Position numbers and translations under genes: made by a program. This document shows, piece by piece, positions 1 through 60,329 of a DNA stretch of 64,000 nt. The stretch comes from Periplaneta americana. Its lineage: Eukaryota; Arthropoda; Insecta; Blattodea; Blattidae. The notes under the pieces are model-generated. The model had not been told where the DNA came from, did no database searches, and worked only from the letters and a program-made list of their open reading frames with translations. The stretch spans positions 16,114,800 through 16,178,799 of the forward strand of contig NC_091131.1 in NCBI RefSeq assembly GCF_040183065.1, given 5' to 3'. Within the stretch, counting starts at the first letter, position 1. Every line of letters starts with the position of its first letter.

Positions 1-106
1 AAGATCCATGCCTCCGTCAAACCTCTTTGACTCCTCTACACTTATGTCCATGTCTCCGTCCTCCGGAGCTGCAAAATAACAAGTCTAATGTATCATATGT
101 AAGAAA

Positions 107-6249: not shown

Positions 6250-6504
6250 CTATGCTTACGTAGACGGGCCATTTCAACACTTCGGTTAGAATATCCCCTT
6301 TCAGCCAGTAGCGGATCGTCCAAGTGCCTTCGTCTGCTACTGTGACTGGATTCCTTAGAATCGAACATGTAAGGGGCGTTTTTAGCACAGTTGTCTCGTT
6401 GCTGGGGTTTGTTATTTCACAGTAATCACTGTCGTCTCTAGTTGCATCCAGCTTTCCAGTCTTTCCAATATACCAAAACGATGACGTATTGGTAGCAGTA
6501 TCAC
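6250..6504 (-). CDS. Exon d of a split glycoprotein gene (Ig-like, 85 codons)
   Basis: Read on the minus strand, the segment follows a consensus acceptor (CAG before 6504) and ends at the donor GTAAGT (6249-6244). It is open throughout, 255 nt long, and begins with the last two bases and ends with the first base of a codon (phase 1-1). It encodes a beta-rich, extracellular-looking domain with two cysteines (DYCEI, LTCSI), two N-glycosylation sequons (NTS, NET) and an Ig-type F-strand signature around 'ADEGTWTIRYW', followed by a G strand ending WPVYVSI. It joins in frame to exon c (8680-8796). The open frame needs at least one more exon downstream (below 6250), which was not found. The protein family is unrecognised. 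The Ig-like assignment is inference from cysteine and D-x-G-x-W/Y spacing and from phase-1 symmetry. Confidence 0.75.
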
Positions 6505-6714
6505 CTGAAACATTGTAAAATATACGAGTACATGTAGATACATCTAAATAACTGAAACATTGAGTGTATAATTTACGTCTTAATAGATGGACAATTGTAT
6601 GTAGGATGTAGGTAACTCCAAGTAGCTACAATATTGGACATCGAATTAAATGAATGGGTGAATTCAAATAGACCTACATTCTCTTCTCCACCAAGACTCC
6701 GGTATTTCCAAACA

Positions 6715-7621
6715 TCTATATATATAATTTGAACTGGTAATGGAAATTGCGGGAAAACAGCTGAAGGGATTTTAATAAATGACGCATCATTTTGAAGCTT
6801 GGAACCCAAAATTTTTAGAAAAATAGTAGTTTTCAGTGAAATATCAATTTTCCTACGTTATTTTCCTATTCTTCAAAATCCATCTTTCTTCAGTTTTGAG
6901 AACTAATTGCATTTCAGCACGGCTGTGATTTCAGAATAAAACAAAACACACACTACAATAAACAATAGCTATTACACGAAGGCCATGACCTGCAGGATTG
7001 CTGACATATTTAGAGTTCAAATTCAATTGGTTATTAAAAACAAGTGATTTGCAGGTCTGATTGTGTGGTGTATAATTTTCTAAGTACAGCTGTGTATTGG
7101 ATATTGAAATCTACGAAACTTGACGAGGTTTTTTTGGCATTATTACCATTAGAAATGAAATTGCATTACAGTTAATGCCATGATGTGGCTATTTTTCATT
7201 AATTATACATATTAATGCTACACTGATGATATGAAAGTGAAACGTTTTGGGAATATATAAGTAGATATAGAGAATGTGTTAAATTAGATCTTCATTTCTG
7301 TAATTTACTGAGTGGCAGCTATTCTATATATAAAACTACAAAACTTACGTAAGGTAATAATACTATTATTAAAAATCAAATATTTTTATAGTTTTTAATC
7401 AAGTGGGGTTGGGTCTTTTTCATATATTTAATGGCGGTGTGGTGTAGATACTTCTATGCGTCATTCTCTTCAGTATTGGCTCGAGAGAGAGTATCTTTCA
7501 TTGTTATGGAAGCAAATAACTTTCAGAATGTCTGGTATTCTTCATTGAAAATAAATTTGAAAAATGTTTATTTGAACGTCTAATGAACTTAGTTTGCAGC
7601 ATTTGCTGCACAAGCTACTAG
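6715..7621 (+). mobile_element. Non-autonomous Helitron, first unit of a head-to-tail dimer (H1)
   Basis: It starts TCTATATATATAATTTGAAC after an A and ends with the hairpin GCAGCATTTGCTGC followed by ACAAGCTA and CTAG. These are the 5'-TC, hairpin and CTRR-3' hallmarks of Helitrons. There is no coding capacity. Its 3' CTAG abuts directly the start of a second copy (7622). It lies in the host intron between exons c and d. Relatives in the window are at 33253-34501, 35264-36243 and 37221-37989. Confidence 0.85.
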
Positions 7622-8602
7622 TATATATATATAATTTGAACTGGTAATGGAAATTACGGGAAAACGGCTGGACGGATTTTAATAAATAACCCCTCATTTT
7701 GAAGCTTGGAACTCAAAGTTTTTCGGAAAAATAGTAGTTTTCAGTGAAATGTCAATTTTTAAACATAATTTTCCTATTTTCCAAAATCCATCTGTCGTCA
7801 GCTTTGAGAACTAGCTAATAGCATTCACGGCCGACTTGATATTCCCTTCGCTGTTTTGTAAAGGAGAAGCGAAGCGAGATCAAGTCGGCCGTGTTGAATT
7901 TCAGAATAAAATAAAACACATACTACAGTAAACAATGTTACACGAAGGCCATGATCTGCAAGAATGCTGACATATTTAGAGCTCAAATTAAATTGGTTAT
8001 TAAAAACTTAACTTACTAAAAATAATTTACAGGTTCGATTCTGTGGTTTGTAATTTTGTGGGTACAGCTGTGTGTTGGATATTAAAAACTACAAAACTTG
8101 AGGAGGTTTGATGACATTATTACTATTAGAAATAAAATATTATTGTAGTTAATGCCATGATGTGACTATTTTTCATTAATTATACGTATATTAATTCTAT
8201 ATTGATGATATGAAAGTGAAACGTTTTGGGGTTATATAAGTAGATGTAGACAATAACTGAAATTAGGTTTTGATTTCTATATTTTACTGAGTGGTGGCTA
8301 TATAGTATATATAGTGTATGTTACTGAAAGCTATAAAACTTACGTAAGATAATAATATTATTAAAAATCAAATATTTTTATAGTTATTAATCAAGTGGGG
8401 TTGGGTCTTTTTGATATATTTAATGGCGGTGTGGTGTAGATATTTATATACGTGGTTCTCTTTAGTATTGGCTGGAGAGAGATTATCTTTCATTGTTATG
8501 GAAGCAAGTAACTTTCAGAATGTCTCGTATTCTTCATTGAAAATAAATCTGAAAAATGTTTATTTGAATGTCTAATGCAGCATTTGCTGCACAAGCCACT
8601 AG
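7622..8602 (+). mobile_element. Non-autonomous Helitron, second unit of the dimer (H2)
   Basis: This begins immediately after the CTAG of the preceding copy and ends in the same hairpin (GCAGCATTTGCTGC) plus ACAAGCCA and CTAG, followed by T at 8603. Compared with the first unit it carries an extra palindromic segment (7829-7892), with arms beginning ACGGCCGACTTGAT and ending ATCAAGTCGGCCGT. It ends 78 bp from host exon c. Confidence 0.85.
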
Positions 8603-8679
8603 TATGTTTTATTTCCGATCGCGGAAGTATGAATGGAGAAGTAGTATTGTAAGTTAGGAGTTCAACTGTAGTCACTTAC

Positions 8680-8796
8680 TCATCTCAGTGATCTGGACCT
8701 CACTGGCCAGCGCGTATGTTTGATTGTAGTACACCATTTTAAAATGCGTCTCGTTATTAGGTTTGTAGACGACCTCTGCGCCACATTCAGCTACAC
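8680..8796 (-). CDS. Exon c of the split glycoprotein gene (39 codons)
   Basis: Minus-strand exon with acceptor CAG before 8796 and donor GTAAGT after 8680. The length of 117 nt is divisible by 3, with phase 1 at both ends. It encodes a short segment with one cysteine (VAECGAEVVY) and two sequons (NET, NQT), ending in EVQITEM. This is typical of half of an extracellular beta-sandwich domain. The split codon with exon b is G-GT (Gly) and with exon d A-GT (Ser), so both joins keep the frame. It most likely completes a domain begun in exon b (18350-18550). No family was recognised. Confidence 0.7.
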
Positions 8797-8945
8797 CTGT
8801 AACACAAAACAGAGATCATACATAGGCCAGAAGTGTAGGAAAAAATGGAGAAAATCCTTTTTTTGTGGAGTGCATTTTAATATTAAAATGTTGAAATACG
8901 AACCTTTAATATTAATACATAGTGGATTAACCGAAGATTTGAGTA

Positions 8946-10250
8946 CAGTAAAACCTCGTTAATCCCGACCCCGATAACCCGGACTTCGCTTAATCCGGAC
9001 AGGCAAAAAAACTATGAGTGTGGGAAAATTAAAGAACTTTGTTTTAAGAGGAGAGGATGGTATTTTTTAAAACTTTTTTCCTATTTGGTGTAAATTATTA
9101 ATTTTTTTGTATGTAGAGAGCTCATACCTGTTGAAACTCAACCAAATAAAAATATTTTGAAAAAAAAAAATATATTTAGGGGCCCAAATTTGAAAAAAAT
9201 ATATACCCAATGCAGGATTGTACTAAAACCGATATATCTAAACCGTTTTTAAAGATAGATTCAAACAGTTTTTGCAATGTATTTGCAAAAGTATGTTCTA
9301 CAAACTGTCTGTAACAGAATTTTGATATTAGTCCCTATGTTTGTAAAATAAACAATTAAAATTTAGTAACAATTTTCTGATTTCCTTTCTTGCAAACAAA
9401 CGGACGTATTTTTTAAATGAAATCGATTAACAAAATTCTGTTACAGAGAAAAGTTTCCCAATAGTCTAAAGAATGTGTGTTCTAAATTTCATGCATGTAT
9501 CTTTAATAGCTCGGAAATTATATTCATTTGTCTGGCAATGTAGCAAAAAAAAAAAAAAAAAAAAAAATGAAGTTACTGGAAACCGATAAAAGCGGGCGTG
9601 TGATTTAAAAATCCATAGCGCAGGAAGTTTAAAAATGACGTCTCAATATCCGATAAGGGCACAAATACCCACAAAATGTTATGCAATGCATTCCACACAT
9701 ATGAAAGCGTATTTTAAAGAAAAAATTTTTTTTTTGAAAATTTAATTTACCGGAAACAACAATAAAAGTGGGGAAGTGATTTAAAAATCCATAATGCAGG
9801 AAGTTTAAAAATGCCATCCACACATATCACAGAGTATTTTAAAGATTTTTTTTTTTAAATTTAGTAATTTTTCATAAAAAATACCATCCTCTCCCCTTAA
9901 GACTTACTTTTATACATTAGAACTATGGAATTACGAAAGAATATAGACATGTAATTCAAACCAACTTCCGCAGCAAGAATTTGAACTGATGCAGAGCCTG
10001 GTCCGTTCGCCACATCATCATAATTTCATTATGGGTACTGCATTGTATATATTGCTTTACGTTTTACTGTACTGTATAGTGTATTTAGACCTATACTCTT
10101 TAAATACACCGTAATAAACGTGTTTTGTTGCTATAAACGGAGTTTCAATGCACTTTCTACTGTTCTTGTAGGTTATTTCAGTTAATCCGGACTTTGGTGA
10201 AACCAGTCAACCTATCCTTGCAATTGTTCCGGATTAACGAGGTTTTGCTG
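8946..10250. mobile_element. pogo/Tigger-like non-autonomous transposon (outer element of a nest)
   Basis: The terminal inverted repeats are CAGTAAAACCTCGTTAATCC at the left and the reverse complement of CAGCAAAACCTCGTTAATCC at the right. The left flank is TA; the right flank is CA, probably a mutated TA. The TIR resembles pogo/Tigger-type ends of the Tc1/mariner superfamily. No transposase is present. A separate TTAA-flanked element is inserted at 9044-9900. Confidence 0.8.
9044..9900. mobile_element. TTAA-flanked MITE nested in the pogo-like element
   Basis: TTAA at 9044-9047 and 9897-9900 flank inverted ends: GAGGAGAGGATGGTATTTTTT at the left and the reverse complement of GGGGAGAGGATGGTATTTTTT at the right. 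A TTAA duplication is typical of piggyBac-superfamily elements, although the ends do not begin with the usual CCC. The interior is AT-rich with two similar sub-blocks (about 9590-9640 and 9770-9815, 'aaaatccataatgcaggaagttt'). No coding capacity. A single related end is at about 25124. Confidence 0.8.
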
Positions 10251-10635
10251 CATTTCTGTACCATTTTTAAAGCACAGCAACGCATCTGATTGTAATACAG
10301 TAACATTATAGCAGTTCTAATCTTTCTTCAAACTACGACTTTCAGTTAGTTAATTAGTTGATAGCCGTCCCAACCGGGGTTTAATAATCGGTCTCCTAAT
10401 CAATTCTAAATGAATATTTATATTTCATTCAATTTTTTCTTTAATATAAACCCTAGTTAGGTAGGCTATCATTGAACAATTTATTGGAAACGTAACAAAC
10501 AATTTAGGCTACAAGGCAAATTACATTTTATAATGAATATAGGTGATGATTAATTATGCTAATCGATGACTTGAGTGCAGTGGAGGATATGATATCCATG
10601 GTGCTGTCAGGAACTTTTAATCATCGGAAGACTTC
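10251..10635. other. No gene recognised
   Basis: AT-rich intronic sequence between the pogo-like element and the R2-like fragment, with no recognised feature. Confidence 0.5.
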
Positions 10636-11105
10636 TAAGACTCCCGTGGGATTGTGACTCTAGCCCCAATCATAATTCCTACAACGTCCCATGTCTTGAT
10701 CTTATATTTGGTCCACAAATCACTGCAGCATGGCAGATAAATTGCCCGTTTTTCTTTGCAGACTTCTCTAGGTTGTTCCTCGCTGTTCTCAAAACGGACT
10801 GTGGGATCGAAAATGAGTCCACAATTTTTTTTTTCGGTCTATAATAATAATATCTGCTCTTCGAGTTGAACCTCAGCAGAAAGGCACCCAATTTCCTCGT
10901 ACATCTCATACTTATCAGGCCGGCGAAGTTCATTGGCAATCATGGAGCGAATTTTATTATGACGGTCAATTCTCAGTAATTCTCCCTTCCTGCAAAAACC
11001 CAGTACATGGGCTAAGGTTTCTTGCTCATCGCATCTTCTGCAATGGGCAGTACCAAGGCTTGTGCCTGGGAGGCTTCTGACTGGAATAACGTTGCAGCTC
11101 ATACT
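10636..11105 (-). mobile_element. R2-like LINE, C-terminal CCHC and restriction-like endonuclease remnant
   Basis: The minus strand encodes CRRCDEQETLAHVLGFC, matching the C-x2-C-x7-H-x4-C finger of R2-clade elements. It is followed by 'GELLRIDRHNKIRSMIANELRR' (split here as GELLRIDRHN and KIRSMIANELRR), then after a 1-nt frameshift GSTRRADIIIIDRKKK with the acidic residue of the restriction-like nuclease core. After a second frameshift near a run of A it gives IFDPTVRFENSEEQ and VVGIMIGARVTIPRES and a stop. Only this C-terminal end survives; the RT is absent. It sits in the intron between exons b and c, not in rDNA. Two frameshifts make it a pseudogene. Confidence 0.85.
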
Positions 11106-11596
11106 TACCTTTAGACATAACGTTTTACCTTATTATTGCATCACATATACCGAAAATGCTTAAACACTTAAAATGCCCTAGTATATTTAGCAATATTTGA
11201 GTCTATAATTAGATATGATACTTTGGGAAGAAAGTGTTAAATCACTTCTTAATCTGTTGTCTTTGCTTCAAAAAAAGAATAATTTGATATTCATTATTTA
11301 TTTATACCAAATTAATTTTACGTACAAAGCATAAATAATTAGGAACACCCGTATGATCAAAGCTCGTGTTTATAATATAGACATACAAAAAATAATGCAC
11401 ACAAATAATATTATACTGTATATGTGCAAAACAAAACAAAAAAAAAAACAAAAAAAAACAAGAAAAACAAATAAAAACATGAAAGAAAAAACTTAAATGT
11501 TGTTTGTCAGAACCTCTTGATCATTCATTTGATTTTTTTTTAGTATTTCTGCCACTGAACAAATTGATAATTTAACTCTGTTGAACATTTCCATAA
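11106..11596. other. No gene recognised
   Basis: Very AT-rich, with an A-rich low-complexity patch at about 11420-11490. No exon or repeat family was identified. Confidence 0.5.
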
Positions 11597-11600
11597 AAAT

Positions 11601-11643
<43 letters not shown>

Positions 11644-13045
11644 TTCTGGTGTAGTTAAGGCCATCAGGCCTTCTCTTCCACAACACCAGGAATACAAATA
11701 CAATAACAGAAATAAAAAGGAAAAAAAAAACACTATAAACGAAGTAAAGTCACACAAAAATATACACAGGTTGCAGTCACACAAACTTTAAATGAGTGAT
11801 TAAGTATAATTAATTGTATCCTAATTAACTAACACAAACAAGAAACTTGCGATTTTAATCTGGAGTAAAAAAACACAAATCAACACTTCTAGCAATATCT
11901 AAAACGCATTAAACAAGACAAAATTTTCCAATTTAATTTTGAATTGTGATCAAGTCCGGCAGTCCCTGACATCATTAGGTAGCGAATTCCAGAGACGAGG
12001 TATTTCTACAGTGTAGGAGGATGAGTATAGAGACGTTCTATGATGAGGGATAGAAAGAAGTGCTTGATATCGGTTTCGAAGAGTTGTAAGAAATTGAAAG
12101 CGCGATAAGAGATAATTCGGAGTAGAAGTATGCATGATTCTAAATAGAAGAGACAGTGAATGTATTGTTCTTCGTTCCTTCAGACGCACCCATGAAAGTA
12201 ACTGGAGGGAAGGTGTTATATGGTCAAATTTACGAGTATTGCAGATGAATCGTATGCACACATTATGAACACGTTGTAGTCTCTCAGCTAAGAGTGAACT
12301 TACATTAGTTAGTAAGGAATCGCAATAATCAAAATGGGGCATTACAAGCGTCTGAATAAGATTCTTTTTTAGACTAAGTGGTAGAAATTCTTTCATATGA
12401 AACAAAGAGTGAAGTTGAGAAAATATTTTTTTGCAAGTGTGTGTTACTTGGGTGTTCCAATTTAGATCGCTATCCATAAAAATGCCAAGATTTTTAACTG
12501 TTTCACTGTATTTAACAATAATCCCATTCAATGTTATATGTGGTGTAGTACCACTATCAAGAGTACTTCGTAGACGATTATGTCCCATTACGATTGCTTG
12601 CGATTTCTCTGGATTTAACCTTAATCCAATTTGTGTGACCACAGTGAAATCGAATTTAAGTCTTCGTTTATTTTATTTACTGCGTCACTAGTCTCGTCAG
12701 GGTGGAAATGCAAATAAATTTGCAAGTCGTCAGCATACATATGGTATTTGCAGTGTTTTATCATTTTAGGCACGTCATTAATATAAATCATGAAGAGTAA
12801 AGGTCCGAGAACTGATCCTTGTTGAATTCCAGATTTCACGACACACCATCTTGAAGAATAATCGCATGCAATGACACATTGTTGACGTTCGCGAAGGTAG
12901 GATTCAAACCAAGTAACAGAACTTTCAGAAAGATTCAGAAGTCTTAATTTACATAATAGAAGGTCCGTGTCAACTGTATCAAATGCCTTACTGAAGTCAA
13001 GTAATGTCAGTAATGTTAATTTACGTTCATAAGTTGACATAGTAG
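11597..13045 (-). mobile_element. CR1-like LINE with RT core, 5'-truncated and frameshifted (copy B)
   Basis: Two overlapping minus-strand frames (13040-12621 and 12642-11950) form one polymerase broken by a single frameshift near 12630. The first holds the RT core: LLDFSKAFDTVD, then GIQQGSVLGPLLFMIYINDV and the catalytic YADDLQIY. The second holds the thumb and C-terminus: LRLNPEKSQAIVMGH, 'VKNLGIFMDSDLNWN', 'MPHFDYCDSLLT', 'LQRVHNVCIRFICN' and EIPRLWNSLPNDVRDCR. The endonuclease and upstream ORF are missing. The 3' end is a variant of the family hairpin (11645-11692) followed on the minus strand by an AAAT tail (TTTA repeat 11600-11644). Intronic to the host gene. Confidence 0.92.
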
Positions 13046-13594
13046 CCTAACATTTCATAATACTGTATGACACAGAAGTCAGTTGACGAATGGAAAAAAA
13101 TACTAATGGTACAACTGAAATAATTATTGTACAAAGTAACGTAATGACGTGTTCCTTCCAAGATGTTCGTAACCTGAATGACCTTTTTCATTTATACTGC
13201 ATGTTCCCCTTTTTGTACCACTAGAATTATCCATCTTTTGTCTCCATATCAGTTTTCTTGAATTAGTTTCAGTGGAATACGTAAAATGAATACAGTACAG
13301 GCCAAATTTTGATCTCCACTACTGATGATCATCGTTGCACTACTTATTTGCGTCAACGTTTAAATATTGCAATTCAAAGCGGAAATGCAATGAGCGTTTT
13401 AGGTACTCTTCCAGAGTCCAGACCTTTGGACGAACTCTTTCTCATGTAAAATTTTATTAACTATTCCGTATGTAAATATTTGTATTTTTTATACAGTACA
13501 TAAATTGAAGTAGGTCATGGTAAGGCAAACAACAATGCTACAGTTATTGTGTGTTTTGCTACGTTTTCACCCCTTCAAATTACAGCATTTACAC
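13046..13594. other. No gene recognised
   Basis: Mixed AT-rich sequence leading into the mariner remnant. It may contain degraded 5' mariner sequence, but no motif is convincing. Confidence 0.4.
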
Positions 13595-13871
13595 ACAATG
13601 CAAGAAGAAGATCCACTCAAGAGGCGAACATATTGCAACTGGATCACATAGGATTTGCGTACTGTTCGATCCTTCCTTCAGCATGTTCTGTTCAGTGACG
13701 AATGCTTATTCTTTCTGAATGAGCATACTCATACACAAAATGGACGAAACTGGTCCAAAGAGAACACAAGATGGATGCGTGAATCTAACAACCCTGGTGC
13801 TCGAAAAGTTATGGTGTGCTGTAGAATACTATGTGATATTGTTGTGGGACTATATTTCTTTGATGGAAATA
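13595..13871 (+). pseudogene. Mariner-like transposase remnant (central part)
   Basis: After a stop-containing N-terminal stretch (QEEDPLKRRTYCNW) the frame gives VLFSDECLFFLNEHTH, then NGRNWSKENTRW, KVMVCCRILCDIVVGLYFFD. The FSDE box, RxWxxENP-like motif and VGPYFFD-like strand are characteristic of the mariner DDE/D transposase around its first and second catalytic acids. The reading stops where the MITE at 13872 is inserted after 'FFDGN'. It is degraded and non-functional. Confidence 0.8.
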
Positions 13872-14965
13872 CAGGGACATCATTTTATTTTTACTAACAT
13901 TTTTAATATTAACCTGGCTATACCTTTAGAAAACTGGAAACACCGTTCGCTACCCCTTTCCACTACTGGAGTTCGATGATACTGGCGTAAAACACAAACA
14001 AATCACTTTATTAGTTATAGGAGGGAAGAAAAGTAGTTCATCCATTTACGTAAACTAGGAAATATCGCGATTTTGAGTTCGATAATTTTCATTACGTTTT
14101 TGTTTAATCAAAATGCAGTCCTGTATTAAGAATAAGTGTTTTTACACACGAACTGAGTAATCCATGCGAACGTATTCATTATGCACTGCATATTATACTG
14201 TCTACAGCACATTAGCGTACAATATAGAGAATGAAGTTAAATTGAAAAATAATCATAATATGGATATTTAAACACATTTTTCAAAATGGTGGCCGTTCAT
14301 TTCGATACAGGCTTCAGTTCTTTTGTGTATATTATCGCACTATAGACTATTGCATCTAATTCCAATTACCAGTTTCGTCCTTCGTACTAGTAACTCATGT
14401 TGAAATAATTCTGTACCTACTCTATAAAAGAGTAACTTACGTACTGTAAATTCAATCTTCATTTCTGCCCGATCCGAAAAGATAAAATTACTCAGACATG
14501 CTATCTACTGTCCGTCCATGTGGTTATGCCGCAGGATCGTAGAAAGGGGGGAAATCACGTGACAGTTAATTACTTAACGAGGCCCTTTTATTTAAGTTAA
14601 ATTAAACAGTTGTATAATATTACGTAAACGTCCAATTCCTAAGAGAAATTAATGTTTTCAGAAAAGAGCTAAGACAGTCCAGCTTTTACAGAGGAGCGAG
14701 CAGAAGCAGGTGGGGGAAATCGGGATGCGACGTAGGCAAACGGACAGTACCTGTGTGAAAATATGATTCAATATTGAAAGCTCTTTCGTCACTGTAAAAC
14801 GCGAACATATTTCTGGAACGTACTATACTCACTAACTCAGTGCTGTTTACTATATGCGGCCTTGGTTCTGTGTGGAGGACAGTTGGAACTTAATTAGTAG
14901 AAGGGGTGGGAGTGAAGTACATTCAAAAACTTAGGTACAATAAAAATTTAAGAATAAACAAAAAA
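13872..14965 (+). mobile_element. ~1.1-kb TA-flanked MITE, copy 1, right end degraded
   Basis: It begins CAGGGACATCATTTTATTTT right after TA (13870-13871), inside a mariner transposase remnant. The body is colinear with the copies at 27944-29027, 40266-41241 and 62387-63482. The right TIR is lost: the expected AAAATAAAATGATGTCCCTG is replaced by A-rich sequence at about 14950. No coding capacity. The TA duplication points to Tc1/mariner-superfamily mobilisation. Confidence 0.85.
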
Positions 14966-15170
14966 AATACACTTATTAAAAAATACTCGGATTCGAACCA
15001 CTACATGACCCAATTAAAGGAATGCTTAGCGGAAAATGTACCTCTGCGCCTCAGCACATACACAATTCCCTTTCTTGTCCATTGGAAAGTTATTGCTGCC
15101 TCAATCGGAGGTAACCGGAGGTCTCCGACTGAAAGCGTGCAGACAACCGCTCCGGAGACTACCTAGACTA
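14966..15170 (-). other. Possible tRNA-derived fragment (B-box like)
   Basis: The reverse complement of 14988-15003 reads GTGGTTCGAATCCGAG, a good tRNA B box (GGTTCGAATCC). Upstream on the minus strand an A box is only weakly suggested. Probably a SINE head relic; the fold was not verified. Confidence 0.35.
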
Positions 15171-15779
15171 GACGACATTTCGGAAGGCGGTCAGCTACTA
15201 CATGCGCCGTAGCAGTTCTGGTATGTGACGTCATAAACTTGTACAGTAGAACCAATCAGAATCAGTCTATAACAAGTACTTCCCGAGTTCGTTTGTTCAC
15301 GTGTGAGTGTTTCAATACATTGAATAAGTAAAACTAACATCTACTGTGTGTGTGTAAGATAAATAAATGGAAGGAGAGACTGTAAAAAGACAAGTATTGC
15401 ACAGGCAGGCGCGGAAAATAGTGTTTAAGGTGTATAATTATTTTAAAAACGTTGACGAGCAGAACGCTGCCGGACATCTTGATGCTGACTGCAACGTTGC
15501 CAACGCGCAAGAAACGAAGCACAGAAGCATGTGGTGTGGGATTGAGAACCGTGCAAAGAATATTGTTAGTGAAGGAAAGAGGGTTTGTTTAGTGTCATGC
15601 TTACAGTAATCAACGGCTAAGGTCATTATTGTCTTTTGATAATTTAAATTCTCTCCTGAGCTATTTGTATTGCACGTGCTCGTGAAGTACGATGTGGCAA
15701 TGTTGTACGCTGCCTTGCTCTCTCTATCTGTCTCTCTCGACGCAAACGCTAGCAGACTACCGCCTTCCGAATTGCCGTC
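15171..15779 (+). mobile_element. TIR transposon deletion derivative carrying a transposase N-terminus
   Basis: The ends are inverted: GACGACATTTCGGAAGGCGG at the left and the reverse complement of GACGGCAATTCGGAAGGCGG at the right. Inside, an ORF from 15367 to 15609 (80 codons) starts MEGETVKRQVLHRQARKIVF. That resembles N-termini of insect transposase-like proteins of the 'RQAR-KIVFKVYNYFK' type, with a helix-turn-helix-like region. The rest of the transposase is missing. A CCAAT-containing stretch at about 15249 and GT-rich sequence precede the ORF and could be its old promoter. The family is unassigned. Confidence 0.65.
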
Positions 15780-16000
15780 GACTCTAATCATGCGCAGAAC
15801 TAATGAGACACTGAATACTTACGACGTTGTTCACTGTATATAGTAATAACAACCTAATGATTCGTAAGTTGTTGCTGAGAAGTGAATTGTGAGTTCCTGA
15901 GAGAAATTACTCGTTGAGTTAGCAAACATCACATATAAAATATGCCAAGATAAGTTATCAGAGTTAAAATTTCAATGGACATAGTAATAAAAATAAAAAC

Positions 16001-16032
<32 letters not shown>

Positions 16033-17170
16033 TAATAATAATAAATTAATTTCTAATTTGGGAAATTGCTATTTAACTTCCAAGATGAAGAGAATGTTCC
16101 TGATAAAGACAATATATCCAATTGTGACTCAGATGAGAACTGGCTTTCTGAGATATCAGATAGCTCAGAATATGTACCAAGTAGCTATGAAAGTGATAAA
16201 TACTTCCAAAGAGACGCAAAACCAACAAAAAGTGTCAGACTCTTGCTAGTAAATCAAAACCAGTGAAACAAATTATATCTACTGTAACTCTATCAATAAA
16301 CAAAGATCTCATATTTGTAATCACAAGGGGTACAATTAACATTATAATTGCAACAAATAAATCTAGTAACAACATATACTTCAGCCCGAAGGACGAGGGA
16401 ATTTAACATCCAGGTTTGACTCTACGTTTCAAAATACACTGCTAGTCAAAACTTGTTTATGTAATTAATTATTTTCTAAAACAATCATTAATAATACAAA
16501 TGATGTAATATTACTTGTGTTTTATTTAAAAACTGTTTACAAACAAAAATTAAATTTTCAAATTACTAAGAGCATGAATTGATTTTTGGTAGCTTCCGAA
16601 CTTCCAAAACCTTTTCTTGTAAAGTTACGAACATGCACTTATCAACCTATGGCTCTCTGCCACAGACTTTTCTTACAATTTCGCGTATAATTTTTAAACA
16701 TCTGTTTTATGGTGTTCAGTAAAGCATACATTTTTCGCTGTAATGTCGCAGTAAAATAATGTATGTGTCATTGGTGTAAATATTCAACCTAACATTTTAT
16801 ACAGTTCCTTTGCCTAACGATCGCGTACTAATTTACATACTTTGACATTCGACGTACAATTTATTATAGCAATCAGAAGTAATAGTACATCATCATCTCT
16901 ATTTCACTTAATCCACTTATATGTGCCTTCAACAATTAACTTTCTTTTTTTCTTTAATGTATCACATCACATTATATTGTATATGTTTATTGTATTCAGG
17001 ACCCTTGTGGTCACTCAAATTCTTTGAGCTGATGTCTATAATTTAGAAAATATATATTTAAAAATTTCTGAAATATCAACGATAAATTCCAATTTGCGGT
17101 TTTAGCCATCTTTTGGATCTCGAAATAGCTGTAAAGTCCTACTTGCCTTTCAATCCGGCATTGGAACTAG
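15780..17170. other. No gene recognised; AAT microsatellite and an acidic ORF of unknown nature
   Basis: An AAT/AATA run lies at 15998-16044. It is followed by a 66-codon frame (16066-16266) encoding an acidic, serine-rich peptide (for example DSDENWLSEISDSSEY). There are no splice sites in a convincing arrangement, no family match and no start context, so it is not called as a gene. The rest is AT-rich and unassigned. Confidence 0.4.
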
Positions 17171-17174
17171 AATC

Positions 17175-17228
17175 CGATGTGGCTTAGTGGATAAAACGTC
17201 GGCACGGGTTCGGGTCCCGGTGCTGGAG
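17175..17228 (+). mobile_element. tRNA-like head of a SINE
   Basis: 'gtggcttagtggataa' resembles an A box and ACGGGTTCGGGTCCCGGTGC contains a strong B box, within about 50 bp. There is no proper acceptor stem, anticodon arm is not resolvable, and there is no 3' CCA-ready end, so it is a SINE/tRNA relic rather than a tRNA gene. Confidence 0.5.
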
Positions 17229-17239
17229 AGAATTTTTTC

Positions 17240-17565
17240 TTCGTTCTATCCATCTTTCACTACATGGTAACGCAAAATTCCTGCACGGAAATATCATATG
17301 TACTTTGGTAGATAATAGTAATGCGCTTAAAAGTGTTGCAGGTGGGATGTGCTGAATAACATGGGTGATCCTTTGTTTCAAGTCTTCTAAAGATGTAGAC
17401 TCTATCTGAAAAACGTGCTGTTTCACAAATCCTAATAGGAAAAAAAATCAAGGGATGTGAGGTCTGGTGATCGTGCAGGCTATATCTGAGATCCACCTCG
17501 TCCAACTCAGTGTACACCCAATATCTCATTTAGTTTCTAGCGAACTGTTAGAGCATAATGCACCT
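17240..17565 (-). pseudogene. Mariner-like transposase C-terminal remnant
   Basis: The minus-strand frame gives LLGFVKQHVFQIESTSLEDL followed by KQRITHVIQHIPPATLL. This matches the 'LWGYVKDxVY... LxDLKxRI...' C-terminal region of mariner-type transposases, after the third catalytic acid. A degraded 'TRPHIP' corresponds to the usual RSPDLTP. Frames are interrupted by a poly-A expansion. It starts next to the SINE head at 17175-17228. Confidence 0.65.
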
Positions 17566-18349
17566 TGATCGTGTTGAAACCATGTTCTTATCCGTTTCTT
17601 CACTGGCAAATCATACAGGACCTCATTTGCAATGCTCTCAGACAATTCCCCATATGTGTGTTGGTTTATACAGGGACACGATGATCCACATTAAGAGAAG
17701 ACTACTCTAACAACATGTCATCGAAATGATCACGTGAACTATTGTTAACATATGTATTTTATATATTTTATCCTTAAGTTGTGTTTTATGTAGTTTTATC
17801 AACAGCATCCATAATGTTCATGAATGTTCCAATCCCACAGTTATGCAGACCTATTTAAATGTAACAGGCATTCGCATTTGAAAATGGTACACATGTACTG
17901 AAAACGTTAATGCTATAAATGTAATACTAGATAAGGACAGACTGTTTAATTTATTCAATATACTTAAGATTATAACTTGCTTATCGGAAACTTCTTACAT
18001 AATGAAATTACTAATCGATTTAGTTTAACGTAAAATATATCTTTAAATCGAATTTCAGAATGAAACGAAAGAACAACAAAATCACAACAAAATTCGGTCG
18101 TCCTTGAGATCTGCGTGCTCCGATTGTCGCTTCCCTCCAAATATCCGCATCCCTCAGTATATCCCCTGTACCACAGACGGTAGTACCGGGCATCATCGGA
18201 GGAGAGCTTTACTCGTAACCTCCGATTCCTCCGCCGGTTGTAGTCGCTCCGCTGAGCAGCACTAATTGTCATACGAGCCACGAAAATGCTAGAGAAAATA
18301 CTGCAGCTAGATAAGCTGTTACATTATTTCTTCTCAGCAGAAAACTTAC
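17566..18349. other. No gene recognised
   Basis: A 103-codon minus-strand frame (18281-17970) has an arginine-rich start (RRRNRRLRVKL) but no family match and no splice context. It sits immediately downstream of host exon b and is treated as intronic. A TE origin is possible. Confidence 0.4.
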
Positions 18350-18550
18350 CTTCATCGCCCCAGTAAGAGACATAGAAGAACGGATCTTCTGAGCCACTGC
18401 TCGGAGGAGGATATAACACTTCTTCTTCTATAGGTTCTGTTATCGTTTGGATGACACACCCCTTCACATTGAGAATAATATCCTGGAATCTGAAGAAGCC
18501 ACTCTCATCTGGCAACAGTTGCACCGCTTCCTTGGGAAAGAAATCATTCG
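18350..18550 (-). CDS. Exon b of the split glycoprotein gene (67 codons)
   Basis: Minus-strand exon preceded by a polypyrimidine tract and acceptor (TTTTTCTAG before 18550) and followed by donor GTAAGT. The length of 201 nt is divisible by 3; phase 1-1. It encodes one cysteine (VKGCVIQT) in a beta-type stretch (LPDESGFFRF), an acidic/proline linker (EEEVLYPPPSSGSEDPF) and a strand FFYVSYWGDEG. It joins exon a through A-CG (Thr) and exon c through G-GT (Gly) without breaking the frame. It probably forms, with exon c, the second extracellular domain. No sequons in this exon; family unrecognised. Confidence 0.72.
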
Positions 18551-18589
18551 CTAGAAAAAGGGAAATAAATTAATAAGATGTTTGGTACA

Positions 18590-18840
18590 TACACAAGGAG
18601 TTAAAAAAAACATTCAGTATTTTGAGAAGTGGTAGTATTAGGCCTAATAAGAACAAGAAAAATGATATAAACATGCGTCCTAAAATCAATATCATCCAAA
18701 ATATGGGTACTTGTTGATCAACATCATAGTAGACGCTCAGTATGATTTTCATTAAACAAAAAAGAGCATTCAGTATTCTGAGGAGTGCCAGTACTCGTGA
18801 AAATAAGAAAAAGGTCTAGTAAACATGCGTCCTAAAATTA
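18590..18840. repeat. Dispersed tandem-like repeat ('aacatgcgtcctaaaatt' family)
   Basis: Two diverged units, each with ATTCAGTATTYTGAGRAGTG followed by AACATGCGTCCTAAAATYAA. The same family appears at 39850-39935 and in several units at 50740-51140. Non-coding. Confidence 0.6.
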
Positions 18841-19035
18841 ATATCTTTCATGTCCTGGAAGCCTGCCCTTATGGCGAAACATTGCGTATACATAGGCACC
18901 ATGCAATTAGAACTAAACTGGCCGATGCCCTTAGAAAACTAAAATACACCGTCTATGAAGAAGTCCACGGAACTGCCGACAATGGCAGTAACAGACGAAT
19001 TGACATAATCGCTATTAGCGAATCCCTGTCTCAGG
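18841..19035 (+). mobile_element. R2-like LINE C-terminal remnant, left half (split by a LINE insertion)
   Basis: The plus-strand frame encodes HVLEACPYGETLRIHRHHAI, then RTKLADALRKLKYTVYEEVH and NGSNRRIDIIAISESLSQG. This corresponds to the H-x4-C half of the CCHC finger, the RHN-I motif and the D of the restriction-like nuclease core. The reading continues at 20191 after a reverse-oriented LINE inserted at 19036-20190. Confidence 0.8.
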
Positions 19036-20190
19036 GTATGATAATTGTATTGTATTGTATTTATTACACTCCATGGTATTCATACATACTTACAGCTAGA
19101 ATATGGGACAAGTCAAAAAACTTGATACTATTATAAAATCTTAATTTATAGTCACAGTCTAGATGAAATATATACAGATGAGATTTACAATATAGTCTAC
19201 TAGTACAACACAATATTTTAGTATCAATTTCATGAAGTGTTATTGAATGTCATGAATTCACCTACAGAATAGAAGGCGTGAGAAATTAGGTACTTCTTTA
19301 ATTTGGCCCTAAATAATTTTATGTTTTGAGTTTCATTTTTTATATCGATAGGGAGGCTATTAAAAATTGTTACTGCCATATAACGTACTCCTTTTTGATA
19401 GCACGATAGACTTGCCGATGGAGTATGAAAGTCATTTTTTGACGTGTATTTATGCTATGAACTGTTGAATTAGTTATAAAGTTTTCACGATTACATACGA
19501 GGAAGGTTATTAATGAAAAGATATACTGACAAGCCAAGGGCATTATTTGTAGCTTTTTGAAAATAGTCCTACACGATTCCCTAGATTTGGCACCTACTGT
19601 TATTCTAATTACTCTTTTTTGTAATAGAAATATACTGTTACTATCTGTGGAATTTCCCCAGAATATTATTCCAAAACTCATTACCGAGTGGAAGTATGCA
19701 AAGTATATTGTTTTTAAGGTATTGGTATTTACTATCTTTTGCATAGATGTAATAGCAAAACAAGCCGAATTTAGTTTGGGGGTAATTTCTTTAATATGAT
19801 TTTTCCAATTTAACACATTATCGATTTTTAAGCCAAGAAATTTGGTTGTTGTTGTTTCTAATAGGGATCTATTATTAATTATTGCGCTAGAAATTTGCGA
19901 CGTTGAATTTGGACATGATTTAAATTGAATTATGTTAGTTTTGTTACAATTTAATACCAATTTATTGACTGAGAACCAGTCACATCTTTTGAATAGAATT
20001 TCCTCTGTTCAAGATTGGAATGTGTTGGAGTTATTGGCTGTAATTACTATATTTGTATCATCTGCAAATAATATGGGCTGACCTACATCTTTTATTAGGG
20101 GGGCAAGATCATTTATAAACACTAGAAAAAGTAGGGGACCTAATATTGATCCTTGAGCAATTCCATTATTAATAGTTCCCCATGTCGATA
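19036..20190 (-). mobile_element. CR1/Daphne-like LINE inserted into the R2-like copy (5'-truncated)
   Basis: The minus strand carries part of an RT: GIAQGSILGPLLFLVFINDL and LFADDTNIVI, then after a frameshift/deletion near 19970 a 196-codon C-terminal frame (19960-19370) with TTKFLGLKIDNVLNWKNHI and LQKRVIRITVGAKSRESCR. The 3' UTR ends with a 'tacaatacaat' tail at about 19037-19060. Upstream domains are missing. Confidence 0.85.
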
Positions 20191-20425
20191 CAGATTTCAT
20201 AGAATCGACCCCACCAGCAGGTTTGAAACGTATGAAGACGTACATGAGGAGAAACGAGCAATCTACGTTCCAACCATCCCGTATTATAAAGATAAATACC
20301 AACTTCACGATATCAGTGTTACGGGATTGATGTTTGGAGCAAGAGGAACGATACCTAACTTCTCTTCTCAATTGAAGGGTACACTGGAAAAACGATCAAG
20401 GTCCATCAAAAATCGAAATTGAGTT
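20191..20425 (+). mobile_element. R2-like LINE C-terminal remnant, right half
   Basis: This resumes the R2-like frame with IDPTSRFETYEDVHEEKRAI and DISVTGLMFGARGTIPNF, the conserved end of R2-type polymerases. Joined conceptually to 18841-19035, the order of motifs is uninterrupted, so the intervening LINE is a later insertion. Confidence 0.82.
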
Positions 20426-21156
20426 AATAATGCTATCTTATAGTGGAAAAGAAGTACTATCATGTGGTGTAGCTAGTAATAAGAAATCGTCATTCTTACG
20501 TCAATTTCTGTTAAATACACACATAACAAAGCATTAAGTGCTTAAACTTTAAAATTAGTTTTTCTCGAAATTTCTAAAATGGACCTTGATCGTTATTCCC
20601 GTGTACCCTTCAATTATGTAAGACCCTAGGACTGCACAAATCGTTTCTGAATGAACTGGCCCTCCTCATAATTAGAGAGTCAGTCAAACTTTTACGAAAC
20701 CACCTATATTGACTCTAATTCAGTGTTCTGAAAAAACTAACGCAACATTATCTCTTTTCTTTCTCTTATTAGCTTTCATTGCTTCTTTACTTGTAACTTT
20801 TTTTTATTCTGTAAATTGCCATTGTTTGTTTGTTTGTGTACTTGTTTACTTTTTTCCTACTCTGTTATCTTTCATCATTTATATTGTTTTGTATGCTTTG
20901 TCTAATGGCAGCCTCTAATTTGAGGAAGCACAATAAAATAAAATAAAATGAGTAGATACTCTACTTCATTCTAGTGCCGAGGTCTAAAAAGCATGGGGCT
21001 CTATCTCCATGCCCCTCAAGTGCCATCATGGCATGTAAAGGGGATACTTCGTCAACAGCATACTTGGGTAATGTTATATCCATTAAAAAAAGAACATTCT
21101 GTATTCTGGAAGGAGAGCACTACCTCAATATTAAACGCTTTTTTTAACACCCTGTT
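20426..21156. other. No gene recognised
   Basis: Intronic sequence. Around 20930-20945 there is an AATAAAATAAAATAAAA stretch that may be an old LINE/SINE tail. No exon found. Confidence 0.45.
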
Positions 21157-22193
21157 TATATATCGTCGTTGAGTTTATGAAACCTCCTATGTGACACTAC
21201 ACAACATAATTTTTCAGGAGGAAGAAAAATTAATTAAAATCAATGGGTCTGCATAAGAATATGAAATAATTCAGTAGAAAACGTTGGTGAATATGATGAA
21301 CATAAATTACATCATCGAGGATCAGTGTAGGCCTATTGATGTTTAATTAATTTTAGAGGGAAACAGATTACGAAATATAAAGAATACTGTTAGAGTTTGG
21401 GATCCGTCTACAAGAGCTTCGCGACACGAGGAGGTTTTACTCACCCGGTTGAGGATTGGCCATTGTCATCTGACACACGGCCATCTCCTACGTGGCGAAC
21501 CTCAGCCGGAGTGCGATATGTGCCATGTTCCACTTACGGTGGAACACTTTTTATTGCGTTGCAGGAAATATGACCATGCACGGAGGCAATATGGAATTCG
21601 GCCGACATTACGTGACGCTGTTGGAAATGATTTTAATTGTGCAAATGCAGTTCTGAGATTTTTATCAAATACAGGTTTGGATAAGGTGATTTAGTTTTTT
21701 ATTGATCCGTTTTACTCATCCTCCGGACCCTTTACATCCGGAGGTTACATTTGTTGTTTTATATTTGATTTTACATTGTTGACATTTCGGACTTTATACA
21801 TCCGAATATTTTATAAAATTTTATGGTTTTAAAATATGATTGACAAGTTATCTCTGGTGGCCTTAGTTTTATTGTTTTATTTGTTCGTTTTGAATAGTGT
21901 GGTAGAATTGCTCACTTTTATGATTCTGTAGAAATCACCTTATGTATACTGCATTTGTGTGGCTCGTTTTATCGTGACAACGCTTTTTAGTTCTTTTAGC
22001 ACTCTGATTATTATATTATTTATGTATTTGTTACATTAAGAATTTCAGATAAGGGCGCAAATAGCCATAGTAGCTGACGCGCCCTTCTTAAACCCTACTC
22101 TTGAATTAATTAATTTTTTCTTGCTCCTGAAAAATTATGTTCTGTACTGTCACATAGGAGGTTTCATAAAATCAACGGCAATATATTCCTTTC
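21157..22193. mobile_element. Element with ~80-bp terminal inverted repeats, carrying a LINE fragment
   Basis: 21157-21240 and 22107-22193 are inverted copies; both contain TTATGAAACCTCCTATGTGA or its close variant, and CATAATTTTTCAGGAG. The segment between holds about 145 bp of unique sequence and then a LINE 3' end (21385-22106) that runs directly into the right arm. No transposase. Confidence 0.75.
21385..22106 (+). mobile_element. R1/jockey-type LINE 3' end (RNase H / CCHC tail)
   Basis: The frame encodes LLTRLRIGHCHLTHGHLLRG, then CDMCHVPLTVEHFLLRCRKY. This is the hallmark 'RLRIGHTxLTHGYLL...C-x2-C...H-x4-C' end of jockey/R1-type LINEs, followed by a stop at 21692. The 3' UTR ends with the stem AAGGGCGC/GCGCCCTT at 22051-22086, a common terminus of such elements. 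Only the 3' end remains. Confidence 0.85.
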
Positions 22194-22199
22194 TTTGTG

Positions 22200-22295
22200 A
22201 CCAAGATCTATTGCGCTAATCCTGAAGCTAGGCGCATCCCCAAACCCATACTAAGGTTCGCTGCGTACCCAGGTTTCGTACCGTATCTTACAATG
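22200..22295 (-). mobile_element. SINE-related fragment shared with 60330-60720
   Basis: GATCTATTGCGCTAATCCTG, CTAGGCGCAT and 'taaggttcgctgcgtaccca' match the body of the SINE-like repeat at 60330-60720. The tRNA-like part is absent here. Confidence 0.55.
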
Positions 22296-22421
22296 TAAGC
22301 AGAATTGTAGAAAAAAGGCTCAAGCAAGGACATAAAGCGTTTTCAGACCAGTGTTCACATAGACTAACATTTTTTTCATTAATTTGCAGTTCATTTTTGT
22401 TCAGATAAGTCTAGTAACATA

Positions 22422-23039
22422 GTACAAAATATATATATAAGTTCAATCATAAGACATATCTCTTTGCAAATATTTATTTGCTATTAATGTTTTAGCCTTA
22501 TTTGGCATCATCAGATATAATAAAATACATGATCTGAAACTTGAGTAAATTGATAAACAAACAGTATAATATACATGATAAATGAATCTTCATGAGTTTT
22601 ATGTATGAAGCTATATATAAGGTTGTTATAATTGATTTTAATACAATACAAGTTTCAAAGAATTGAAAGTAATTGTATATACATATAACTCATGTTACAG
22701 GTATACATACAAGATTAAATAGTGAGCAATTGAATTATGCAAAATATCGGCGGTGTCAAAAACATCAATTAAAAATTTGATTATGAATGAAAATGAAGAG
22801 ATCGTAGATTTAAAATTTGCGAAAGGTAAAATGTGTTAAAATACAATATAATTAGTGTAATACTATGTTACAAATCTTGTGTTTTATGTTGACAATTAAT
22901 CATTATCAAGAACATATGCTTGTGATTTCTGCTGTGATGTAGTATGTGTACGCTTGGATTTTGGGCATGAATATTCTATTTGATATTAAATATTTGCAAA
23001 GAGATATGTCTTATGATTGAACTTACATATATTTTGTAC
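22422..23039. mobile_element. TA-flanked MITE with ~60-bp TIRs
   Basis: The left end GTACAAAATATATATATAAG... and the right end are inverted copies sharing TTCAATCATAAGACATATCT and CTTTGCAAATATTTA, over about 60 bp. TA occurs on both sides (22420-22421 and 23040-23041). 618 bp, non-coding, in the intron between exons a and b. Confidence 0.85.
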
Positions 23040-23183
23040 TATATTTTTCATTCTCTGTATGAGAGGAATATGCCCCTAAAGTTTTGACATCAATTTTAAT
23101 TACATCCTATATATTTCACGAGTAATGTAAAAATAAAATGTAACTCCTTAAATAATTTATTCTTTTTATAAAAGGATACTTAC

Positions 23184-23474
23184 TTTGCCCAGCAACAACA
23201 TAATCCAGGGTATCCTTATGCTTTGGGAACTCGGAGGTAAGTTTATAGAGTCCAAGGCTTTCTTCCGTGTTGCAATCTGTCATCCGTATCTCGCAAAAGT
23301 TATCTTTCTTTACGAATTCTACATTGTCTGTTTGCTGTGACCCAGAGCTCGCTTCAAAGAAGTATGTTGTTCCATTGGATATCGTCAGAGAGCAATTGGT
23401 TAAAGTGTCTTCGAGATCCGGGGCACCTAGGAAGGTACAACTCTGTGCAGACAAGATGACGTTGACGCCATAGA
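23184..23474 (-). CDS. Exon a of the split glycoprotein gene (Ig-like, 97 codons)
   Basis: Minus-strand exon with a polypyrimidine-type acceptor (TTTATTGTTTCAG before 23474) and donor GTAAGTATCC after 23184. The 291 nt are open throughout, with phase 1 at both ends. It encodes four cysteines (AQSC, TNCS, NFCEI, TDCN), two sequons (NCS, NGT) and an Ig/FN-type strand 'EESLGLYKLTSEF', ending DTLDYVVAGQ. It is the most 5' exon found. An upstream exon must exist because the exon starts in phase 1 with no initiator or signal peptide. Codon use and lack of stops contrast with the TE remnants around it. Product: unrecognised extracellular glycoprotein; the Ig-like assignment is inference. Confidence 0.78.
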
Positions 23475-24055: not shown

Positions 24056-24116
24056 AGTGTTCCTGATTATGGTTATTAATATCTAACTCCTTGTCAACTT
24101 CGTCGTGCCTTTCCCA

Positions 24117-24198
24117 CCTAACCTAACCTAACCTAACCTAACCTAACCTAACCTAACCTAACCTAACCTAACCTAACCTAACCTAACCTAACCTAACC
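24117..24198. repeat. Interstitial telomeric-type repeat (CCTAA)n / (TTAGG)n
   Basis: About 16 perfect units of CCTAA, i.e. TTAGG on the minus strand, the canonical arthropod telomere repeat. It lies between an RTE-like LINE fragment and a repeat shared with 26085-26280. As it is internal and short it is an interstitial telomeric site, not a chromosome end. Confidence 0.93.
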
Positions 24199-24289
24199 TC
24201 CTGTACTCCCACAAAGTCTATTCTATACGTAAGTAATTTTTTTACTACTAATGTTACCCCTCCTATTCTATAAAGACTCATGGCATTAC

Positions 24290-29029: not shown

Positions 29030-29544
29030 GTTCTGGTGGTAGGCCTATTGATAGTGGACTGCAAATGGCACACAAAGCGGAAGGAGAAAACCGTTTAATC
29101 CACCACAAATCTCACAGCGTCACTGTTCCGTGTGTGCACTATTTCACAGACTCCACTTGAAATGTGTTGCACCTACCATACTGGAAACTGACGGCTGCAA
29201 ATATCGCTGCGAAGAGCAAGCGGCTGACGGAGCACTCGAGAGTCATGGCGAAGTATCCAATGGAGCCGCCACCGACTGCGCGAGCTTTTATAACGTGATG
29301 GTGTCACGTCGCGATTCCTAGAAGTATCTTATCTGGCTATCTGCGTCCGTTGACGAACCTGTTTACGTCAAGTAATTACTCTTCTGTTCGGGTTTAGCTG
29401 ACAGGCACTAAGTTCTAGATTTTAGAAAGATTAAGACGAATCAGATATGTTAGCTTAAAAGAGCTAGACCTACAGTGCAGCCATTAAGCGGGCGTGTATG
29501 ATAAAATTGCTTCAATTTTGTTTTGTCAACGAAAGTGCTACTAC
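29030..29544. other. No gene recognised
   Basis: Relatively GC-balanced sequence without a recognised exon, RNA gene or repeat. Confidence 0.45.
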
Positions 29545-60205: not shown

Positions 60206-60329
60206 ACTAGTCACTGGGTACGCGTGACTTTTAAAATATTTCTGTAAGGTCATAATAAACAGTTTAAGTAAAACTAACTGTTTAGTTTTTGAAAATAACT
60301 TGTGTCACATGGCAGGTTGGAATGAAATG

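What the first reader, a model, noticed from the sequence alone, without database searches (positions are those of the whole stretch)
6250..23474. A split host gene hidden among transposons: four phase-1 exons of an unrecognised glycoprotein
Seen: four minus-strand open segments (23184-23474, 18350-18550, 8680-8796, 6250-6504), each bounded by a consensus acceptor and an identical GTAAGT donor, each a multiple of 3, each phase 1-1, joining without a stop into 288 codons with six N-X-S/T sequons and eight cysteines. Known: symmetrical phase-1 exons are typical of extracellular Ig-type modules. Inference: a rapidly evolving, lineage-specific Ig-like surface or secreted protein, whose first and last exons are outside or unrecognised.
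Basis: partly seen in the sequence, partly recalled or inferred. Interest (0 to 1): 0.75.

Follow-up and report, generated by a model that had tools for sequence, protein, structure and literature searches.

The report
Cockroach multi-Ig cell-surface protein gene
The four segments are real exons of a ten-exon cockroach gene for a membrane protein with immunoglobulin-type domains; it sits in a row of duplicated copies, and public databases already list it, but only as an uncharacterized protein.

Summary
All four minus-strand exons have the stated ends, phases and donors, and join into 288 open codons with six sequons and eight cysteines. The product spliced from the window matches residues 1-312 of a 686-residue NCBI "uncharacterized protein [Periplaneta americana]" (P0006). 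The signal-peptide exon is inside the window at 29177-29246 and was missed. The sixth coding exon begins at window 68; the other four lie outside.

The gene spans about 51.7 kb. It encodes a type I membrane protein: signal peptide, three distal modules (the finding's exons), three proximal Ig domains with two conserved cysteine pairs, a membrane helix and a very short basic tail. At least four tandem copies lie on the same strand.

The proximal domains are Ig by profile search. Distal modules 1 and 3 resemble them above shuffled controls, module 2 does not, and direct profile-comparison probabilities are low for all three. Copies A and B show dN/dS of 0.41-0.47, so constraint and no sign of positive selection.

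Function is inferred: cell-surface recognition or adhesion. New member of a known kind, moderate interest.

The parts
29285..29292 (-). TATA-like box (TATAAAAG) about 40 bases upstream of the start codon; inferred promoter element
   Evidence: Sequence printed; copies B and C have A/T-rich TATA-like stretches at similar places; A and B align over about 185 bases upstream of the ATG at 68.6 percent identity. Function not tested.
29177..29246 (-).
   Evidence: homologous exon with the same donor in copy B; P0006 residues 1-23, 100 percent.
23184..23474 (-). Coding exon 2 (finding's first exon): distal module 1, four cysteines
   Evidence: copies B and C.
18350..18550 (-). Coding exon 3 (finding's second exon): first half of distal module 2
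   Evidence: copy B 51 percent identical.
8680..8796 (-). Coding exon 4 (finding's third exon): second half of distal module 2
   Evidence: copies B and C.
6250..6504 (-). Coding exon 5 (finding's fourth exon): distal module 3
   Evidence: copies B and C.
1..68 (-). 5' part of coding exon 6 (first proximal Ig domain), cut by the window edge
   Evidence: P0006 residues 312-334, 100 percent; acceptor ...tgttattttgcag before window 68.

Best explanation
The four segments are coding exons 2-5 of a ten-exon gene of the American cockroach, about 51.7 kb long on the minus strand. It encodes a 686-residue type I membrane protein: signal peptide, three membrane-distal divergent modules, three membrane-proximal Ig domains with two conserved cysteine pairs, one membrane helix and a tail of only a few basic residues. 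It is one of at least four tandem copies. Shown: gene, exon structure, tandem copies, Ig nature of the proximal domains, coding constraint. Moderately supported: distal modules 1 and 3 derive from the same Ig type and have lost the canonical cysteine pair while keeping an accessory one. Inferred: it works as a cell-surface recognition or adhesion receptor whose distal modules contact the ligand; since I see no signalling motif in the tail (own reading), it acts by adhesion, as a co-receptor, or through a partner in the membrane.
For: Exact exons; spliced product equals P0006 residues 1-312; P0006 is named 'uncharacterized protein [Periplaneta americana]' and comes from a sequence of 186,716,782 bases, the length of the window's chromosome. 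Copy B gives an open ten-exon model from ATG to stop. Signal-peptide and membrane exons are conserved between copies (signal peptide A-B 60 percent, membrane exon A-B 81 percent). Nine proximal domains share four invariant cysteines, and their profile finds Ig domains: contactin-4 E 8.6e-7, JAM-1 1.4e-5, DIP-alpha 1.2e-4. Pfam Ig_3 hits the last domain at E 0.0036 in P0006 and 0.00042 in the B model. A against B: distal dN/dS 0.41, proximal 0.47, silent exceeding replacement divergence at Fisher p 1.1e-8 and 6.1e-6. Distal modules 1 and 3 against shuffles: 1 of 200 and 2 of 200.
Against: All Pfam Ig scores are below the curated cut-offs, and the distal modules have no Pfam match. hhalign probabilities of the distal modules against the proximal domains are 2.6, 0.4 and 2.3 percent for modules 1, 2 and 3; module 2 is not above shuffles (46 of 200); single-sequence scores are mixed. 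Distal modules do not match each other. Single-exon structure models have mean pLDDT 41 and 48 and no fold match at E 0.001 or better. Nothing here measures expression, surface location or binding. My B model may be two residues short at exon e3: the annotated P0005 uses an acceptor six bases upstream.
Confidence: 0.78

Rival explanations
1. Chance open segments, a dead pseudogene, or relics of a transposon that happen to carry splice-like ends.
For: The window is rich in retrotransposon pieces: of 10 open frames scanned, 3 pass the Pfam reverse-transcriptase cut-off and 3 more match it weakly.
Against: Identity to P0006, matching exons in copies B and C, dN/dS well below 1, 0 of 40 simulations with four such segments, no transposon family match of the joined exons.
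Confidence: 0.01
2. The protein is real, but the three distal modules are not Ig domains; they are another beta-rich fold joined to three Ig domains.
For: No library match; low profile-comparison probabilities; module 2 not above shuffles; the two cysteines of module 3 are only 18 residues apart against 33-40 in the other five modules.
Against: Modules 1 and 3 score above shuffles (1 and 2 of 200) and align in the same register, with cysteines at the C-strand-like and E-strand-like places; the low-confidence model of exon 1 has nine strands, and its listed fold matches are mostly antibody, T-cell-receptor and other Ig chains, though at E 0.12 or worse.
Confidence: 0.27
3. A developmental or neural cell-adhesion molecule, not a defence or non-self recognition receptor. 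(This and the next are rivals for function within the best explanation.)
For: The best structural relatives by profile are adhesion molecules: contactins, JAM, DIP-alpha, NCAM, neurofascin, Dscam.
Against: Such molecules are usually conserved between insects (established knowledge), whereas only P. americana relatives turned up here (limited reach), and tandem copies with strong divergence are more usual for recognition receptors (general knowledge). No expression data.
Confidence: 0.35
4. A defence or self/non-self recognition receptor diversified by tandem gene duplication.
For: At least four tandem copies with 43 percent identity in the distal modules of A and B; only P. americana relatives found; the genome paper reports expanded immune families in this species (passages of PMC12774602).
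Against: dN/dS 0.41 in the distal modules and equally raised silent divergence give no sign of positive selection. That paper does not contain the word 'immunoglobulin' in its main text. No expression data.
Confidence: 0.35

Closest known systems
'uncharacterized protein [Periplaneta americana]', 686 aa (P0006)
   Same: It is this gene: residues 1-312 equal the product spliced from the window, and the rest matches the downstream exons.
   Different: No domain or function is attached to it in the listing seen.
'hypothetical protein ANN_07443 [Periplaneta americana]' (P0005, labelled Cubilin in UniRef)
   Same: It is the neighbouring copy B, from another sequence record: 92 percent identical to my B model over 64 percent of it.
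   Different: The model stops after the first proximal Ig domain and reads the signal-peptide exon in another frame. It has no Pfam match, so nothing here supports the Cubilin label.
Ig-superfamily adhesion molecules (contactin-4, JAM-1, DIP-alpha)
   Same: Profile of the proximal domains matches their Ig domains (E 8.6e-7, 1.4e-5, 1.2e-4).
   Different: Accessory cysteine pair, three distal modules without the canonical pair, very short tail, tandem copies.
Dscam and hemolin of insects
   Same: Multi-Ig arthropod proteins discussed in immunity (listing and abstracts; passages of PMC11999971).
   Different: Dscam diversifies by alternative splicing (start of abstract of PMC5775551) and hemolin is a single gene (passage); here there are whole tandem copies. 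No fibronectin domain was found in P0006, and P0006 has a membrane helix.

Membership tests
Immunoglobulin superfamily (proximal domains) | Sequence-profile match to known Ig domains | tested here: met
   Profile of 9 proximal domains against the PDB: top matches contactin-4, JAM-1, CEA, DIP-alpha, NCAM. Pfam Ig_3 E 0.0036 and 0.00042, below the curated cut-off.
Immunoglobulin superfamily (proximal domains) | Canonical B-strand to F-strand cysteine pair with D-x-G-x-[YW]-x-C | tested here: met
   C22, D82 and C88 invariant in 9 of 9 aligned domains; the G-x-W part varies in copy C.
Immunoglobulin superfamily (distal modules, the finding's exons) | Sequence-profile match to Ig domains | tested here: inconclusive
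   Modules 1 and 3 beat shuffles (1 and 2 of 200), module 2 does not (46 of 200); hhalign probabilities 2.6, 2.3 and 0.4 percent; no Pfam match.
Immunoglobulin superfamily (distal modules, the finding's exons) | Canonical B-F cysteine pair | tested here: not met
   No cysteine at the F-strand place of modules 1 and 3 (GLYKL, GTWTI); an accessory-type pair is present instead. Some Ig-fold domains lack the canonical pair (recalled), so this does not exclude the fold.
Immunoglobulin superfamily (distal modules, the finding's exons) | Ig-type beta-sandwich | tested here: inconclusive
   Exon 1 and exon 4 models are all-beta with mean pLDDT 41 and 48; no fold match at E 0.001 or better.
Dscam | Ig domains followed by fibronectin type III domains (recalled) | tested here: not met
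   No fibronectin match in P0006 or the B model at E up to 10.
Dscam | Arrays of alternative Ig-half exons within one gene (recalled) | not tested
   No second copy of a distal exon was seen inside gene A by tblastn of the fetched region, but splicing was not examined.
Hemolin | Secreted protein of four Ig domains (recalled) | tested here: not met
   Membrane exon present and similar in A, B and Z; six modules.
Cubilin (label of P0005) | CUB and EGF repeats (recalled) | tested here: not met
   No Pfam family at E up to 10 in P0005.

The most novel reading that the evidence does not exclude
A cockroach-restricted tandem family of recognition receptors, diversified by gene duplication and not by alternative splicing, in which the three ligand-facing domains have dropped the canonical Ig disulfide and rely on an accessory one: a defence or self/non-self recognition locus of a kind not yet described for cockroaches.
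Probability: 0.15. Interest if true: 0.65.

Novelty: new member of a known kind. Interest (0 to 1): 0.4.

Why it matters
It turns an 'uncharacterized protein' (and a neighbour labelled Cubilin) into a defined family: tandem multi-Ig membrane proteins with a stated domain, cysteine and exon plan, in an insect of medical and neurobiological interest. That makes expression, knock-down and ligand tests straightforward. If the distal modules are Ig domains without the usual disulfide, they would also show how the fold tolerates a moved stabilising bond.

Tried and rejected
Candidate extra exon 15605-15799 (phase 1-1, GTAAGC): not part of P0006, rejected.

Chance and transposon origin: rejected (see rivals).

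Homolog searches with the four joined exons and with exon 1 alone found nothing, nor did scans of bacterial/archaeal contigs, viral contigs or phages (exon 1). These collections say little about insects; a window retrotransposon scanned in the viral contigs also found nothing. Only the full model of copy B reached the annotated proteins.

Structure prediction: both jobs went to exons 1 and 4 alone before P0006 was known, so there is no model of the whole protein.

Similarity among the distal modules by pairwise alignment: none convincing.

'Distal domains evolve faster under selection': rejected as stated. Silent divergence is also higher there (dS 1.21 against 0.55, Fisher p 6.7e-5) and dN/dS is alike. 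An older split, or gene conversion of the 3' exons, fits better. The A-B comparison leaves out the first proximal domain (exon not fully readable in A) and the signal peptide.

Not found in what was read: exon e2 and the membrane exon of copy C, and the 5' exons of copy Z. Genome-wide copy number: not obtained.

Literature: searches listed no paper whose title or abstract describes this locus; only open-licence papers are held. PMC12774602 (passages and part 1 of section 16) does not contain 'immunoglobulin' in its main text. PMC11999971 was seen in passages only.
Full report
What was checked. The four segments were cut from the window and translated. Their ends, lengths, phases and donors are exactly as written. 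A rule modelled on the finding returns these four on the minus strand and none on the plus strand; 40 simulated strands gave a mean of 0.3 and never more than 2. A general splice-plus-length scan put exons 4 and 2 first among its 8 rows and missed the other two because of its donor cut. The exons have 44-46 percent G+C in a window of 35 percent.

Where it lies. The only answered search of the window's own genome placed the window at bases 16114800-16178799 of one sequence in a 3.23-Gb genome. It also found three exons of a second set on the same strand, the two sets about 70 kb apart, at 36-51 percent identity; the fourth was found. Stretches around them were fetched.

The gene. Comparison of copies gave the missing exons. 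A signal-peptide exon lies at window 29177-29246 (MTLECSVSRLLFAAIFAAVSFQY). Its counterpart in copy B has the same donor GTAGGT, and the two copies align over about 185 bases upstream of the ATG. Downstream come three Ig domains (one starting at window 68, one in a single exon, one split over two exons with phases 1-2 and 2-1) and a membrane exon ending GIIFYIVRKKK-stop. Copy B gives an open model of ten exons and 703 codons; the annotated P0005 suggests that its e3 acceptor lies six bases further upstream, which would add two residues.

Independent confirmation. A search of 5.8 billion proteins with the B model returned two proteins with E up to 1 among 7994 scored candidates, both from P. 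americana. P0006, 686 residues, comes from a sequence of the same length as the window's chromosome. The product spliced from the window is identical to P0006 residues 1-312, the last codon being shared with exon 6, and the rest of P0006 matches the downstream exons except for the part of exon 6 that could not be read. The organism is therefore P. americana. The assembly size agrees with the 3.23-Gb, NCBI-annotated assembly of PMC12774602, for which existing RNA-seq was fed to the gene predictor (passages). I saw no reads.

Domains. Nine proximal domains from copies A, B, C and Z share invariant C22, C34, F36, P39, G41, C71, D82 and C88. Their profile finds Ig domains of contactin-4, JAM-1, DIP-alpha, NCAM and, more weakly, Dscam (E 0.018) in the PDB; 60 of 69 matches are shown. 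The distal modules, which are the finding's exons, have no Pfam match. Profile comparison with the proximal domains gives low probabilities: 2.6 percent for e1, 2.3 for e4, 0.4 for e2+e3, against 96-98 percent among the proximal domains. Against shuffled columns the same scores are reached by 1 of 200 (e1), 2 of 200 (e4) and 46 of 200 (e2+e3). Single-sequence scores against 1000 shuffles each, of which 782-959 were reported, are reached by 13, 1 and 29 for e1 of A, B and C; 67 and 8 for e2+e3 of A and B; 25, 118 and 162 for e4 of A, B and C. So e1 and e4 are probably related to the proximal domains, and e2+e3 is not shown.

Cysteines. In register, e1 and e4 keep the pair equivalent to C34-C71 and lack the canonical C22-C88 pair. 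All 8 distal cysteines are kept between A and B. In copy C the pair is kept in e1 and e4 and the e3 cysteine is kept, while the two extra cysteines of e1 are absent. In e4 the two cysteines are only 18 residues apart, against 33-40 in the other five modules, so the strand assignment there is uncertain. No disulfide was tested. Structure models of single exons are too poor to decide.

Evolution. A against B: distal part (282 codons) 43 percent identical, dS 1.21, dN/dS 0.41; proximal part without the first Ig domain (255 codons) 66 percent identical, dS 0.55, dN/dS 0.47. Both are constrained coding sequence. The lower identity of the distal exons goes with higher silent divergence, so it does not show positive selection; gene conversion of the 3' exons, or an older split of the 5' exons, would explain it. 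Several A-C, B-C and Z comparisons are saturated at silent sites.

How it probably works. Shown: it encodes a protein with signal peptide, multiple Ig domains and one membrane helix. Inferred: it stands on the cell surface; the distal modules bind a ligand or another cell; the short basic tail means that any signalling needs a partner. Copy Z has a longer tail and an acidic, threonine-rich stalk. A defence role and an adhesion role both remain possible; no expression evidence was available here.

Novelty. The gene is annotated but uncharacterised, and the kind is the Ig superfamily. The tandem array, the domain plan and the distal modules without the usual cysteine pair are what is added.

Noticed in passing
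24116-24199: A perfect run of about 17 units of TTAGG/CCTAA, the arthropod telomere repeat (recalled), lies inside the first intron of the gene; it is the only run of three or more units in the window.
   Followed up: partly
51599-53208: Ten copies of a 161-base tandem repeat, 92 percent matches, upstream of the gene.
   Followed up: no
112-1883: A 1.8-kb imperfect trinucleotide-type (AGT) array with longer periods of 93, 129 and 222 bases, in the intron just upstream of exon 6.
   Followed up: no
29488-31046; 12624-13046; 3081-3917; 20012-20395; 59829-60206: Broken non-LTR-type reverse-transcriptase frames; two pieces at 29488-31046 and one at 12624-13046 pass the Pfam cut-off, the others match weakly.
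   Followed up: partly
copy B, bases 16071507-16052166 of the same chromosome (outside the window): The database model P0005 of the neighbouring gene is labelled Cubilin but has no Pfam match, reads the signal-peptide exon in another frame and ends early: a probable misannotation.
   Followed up: yes
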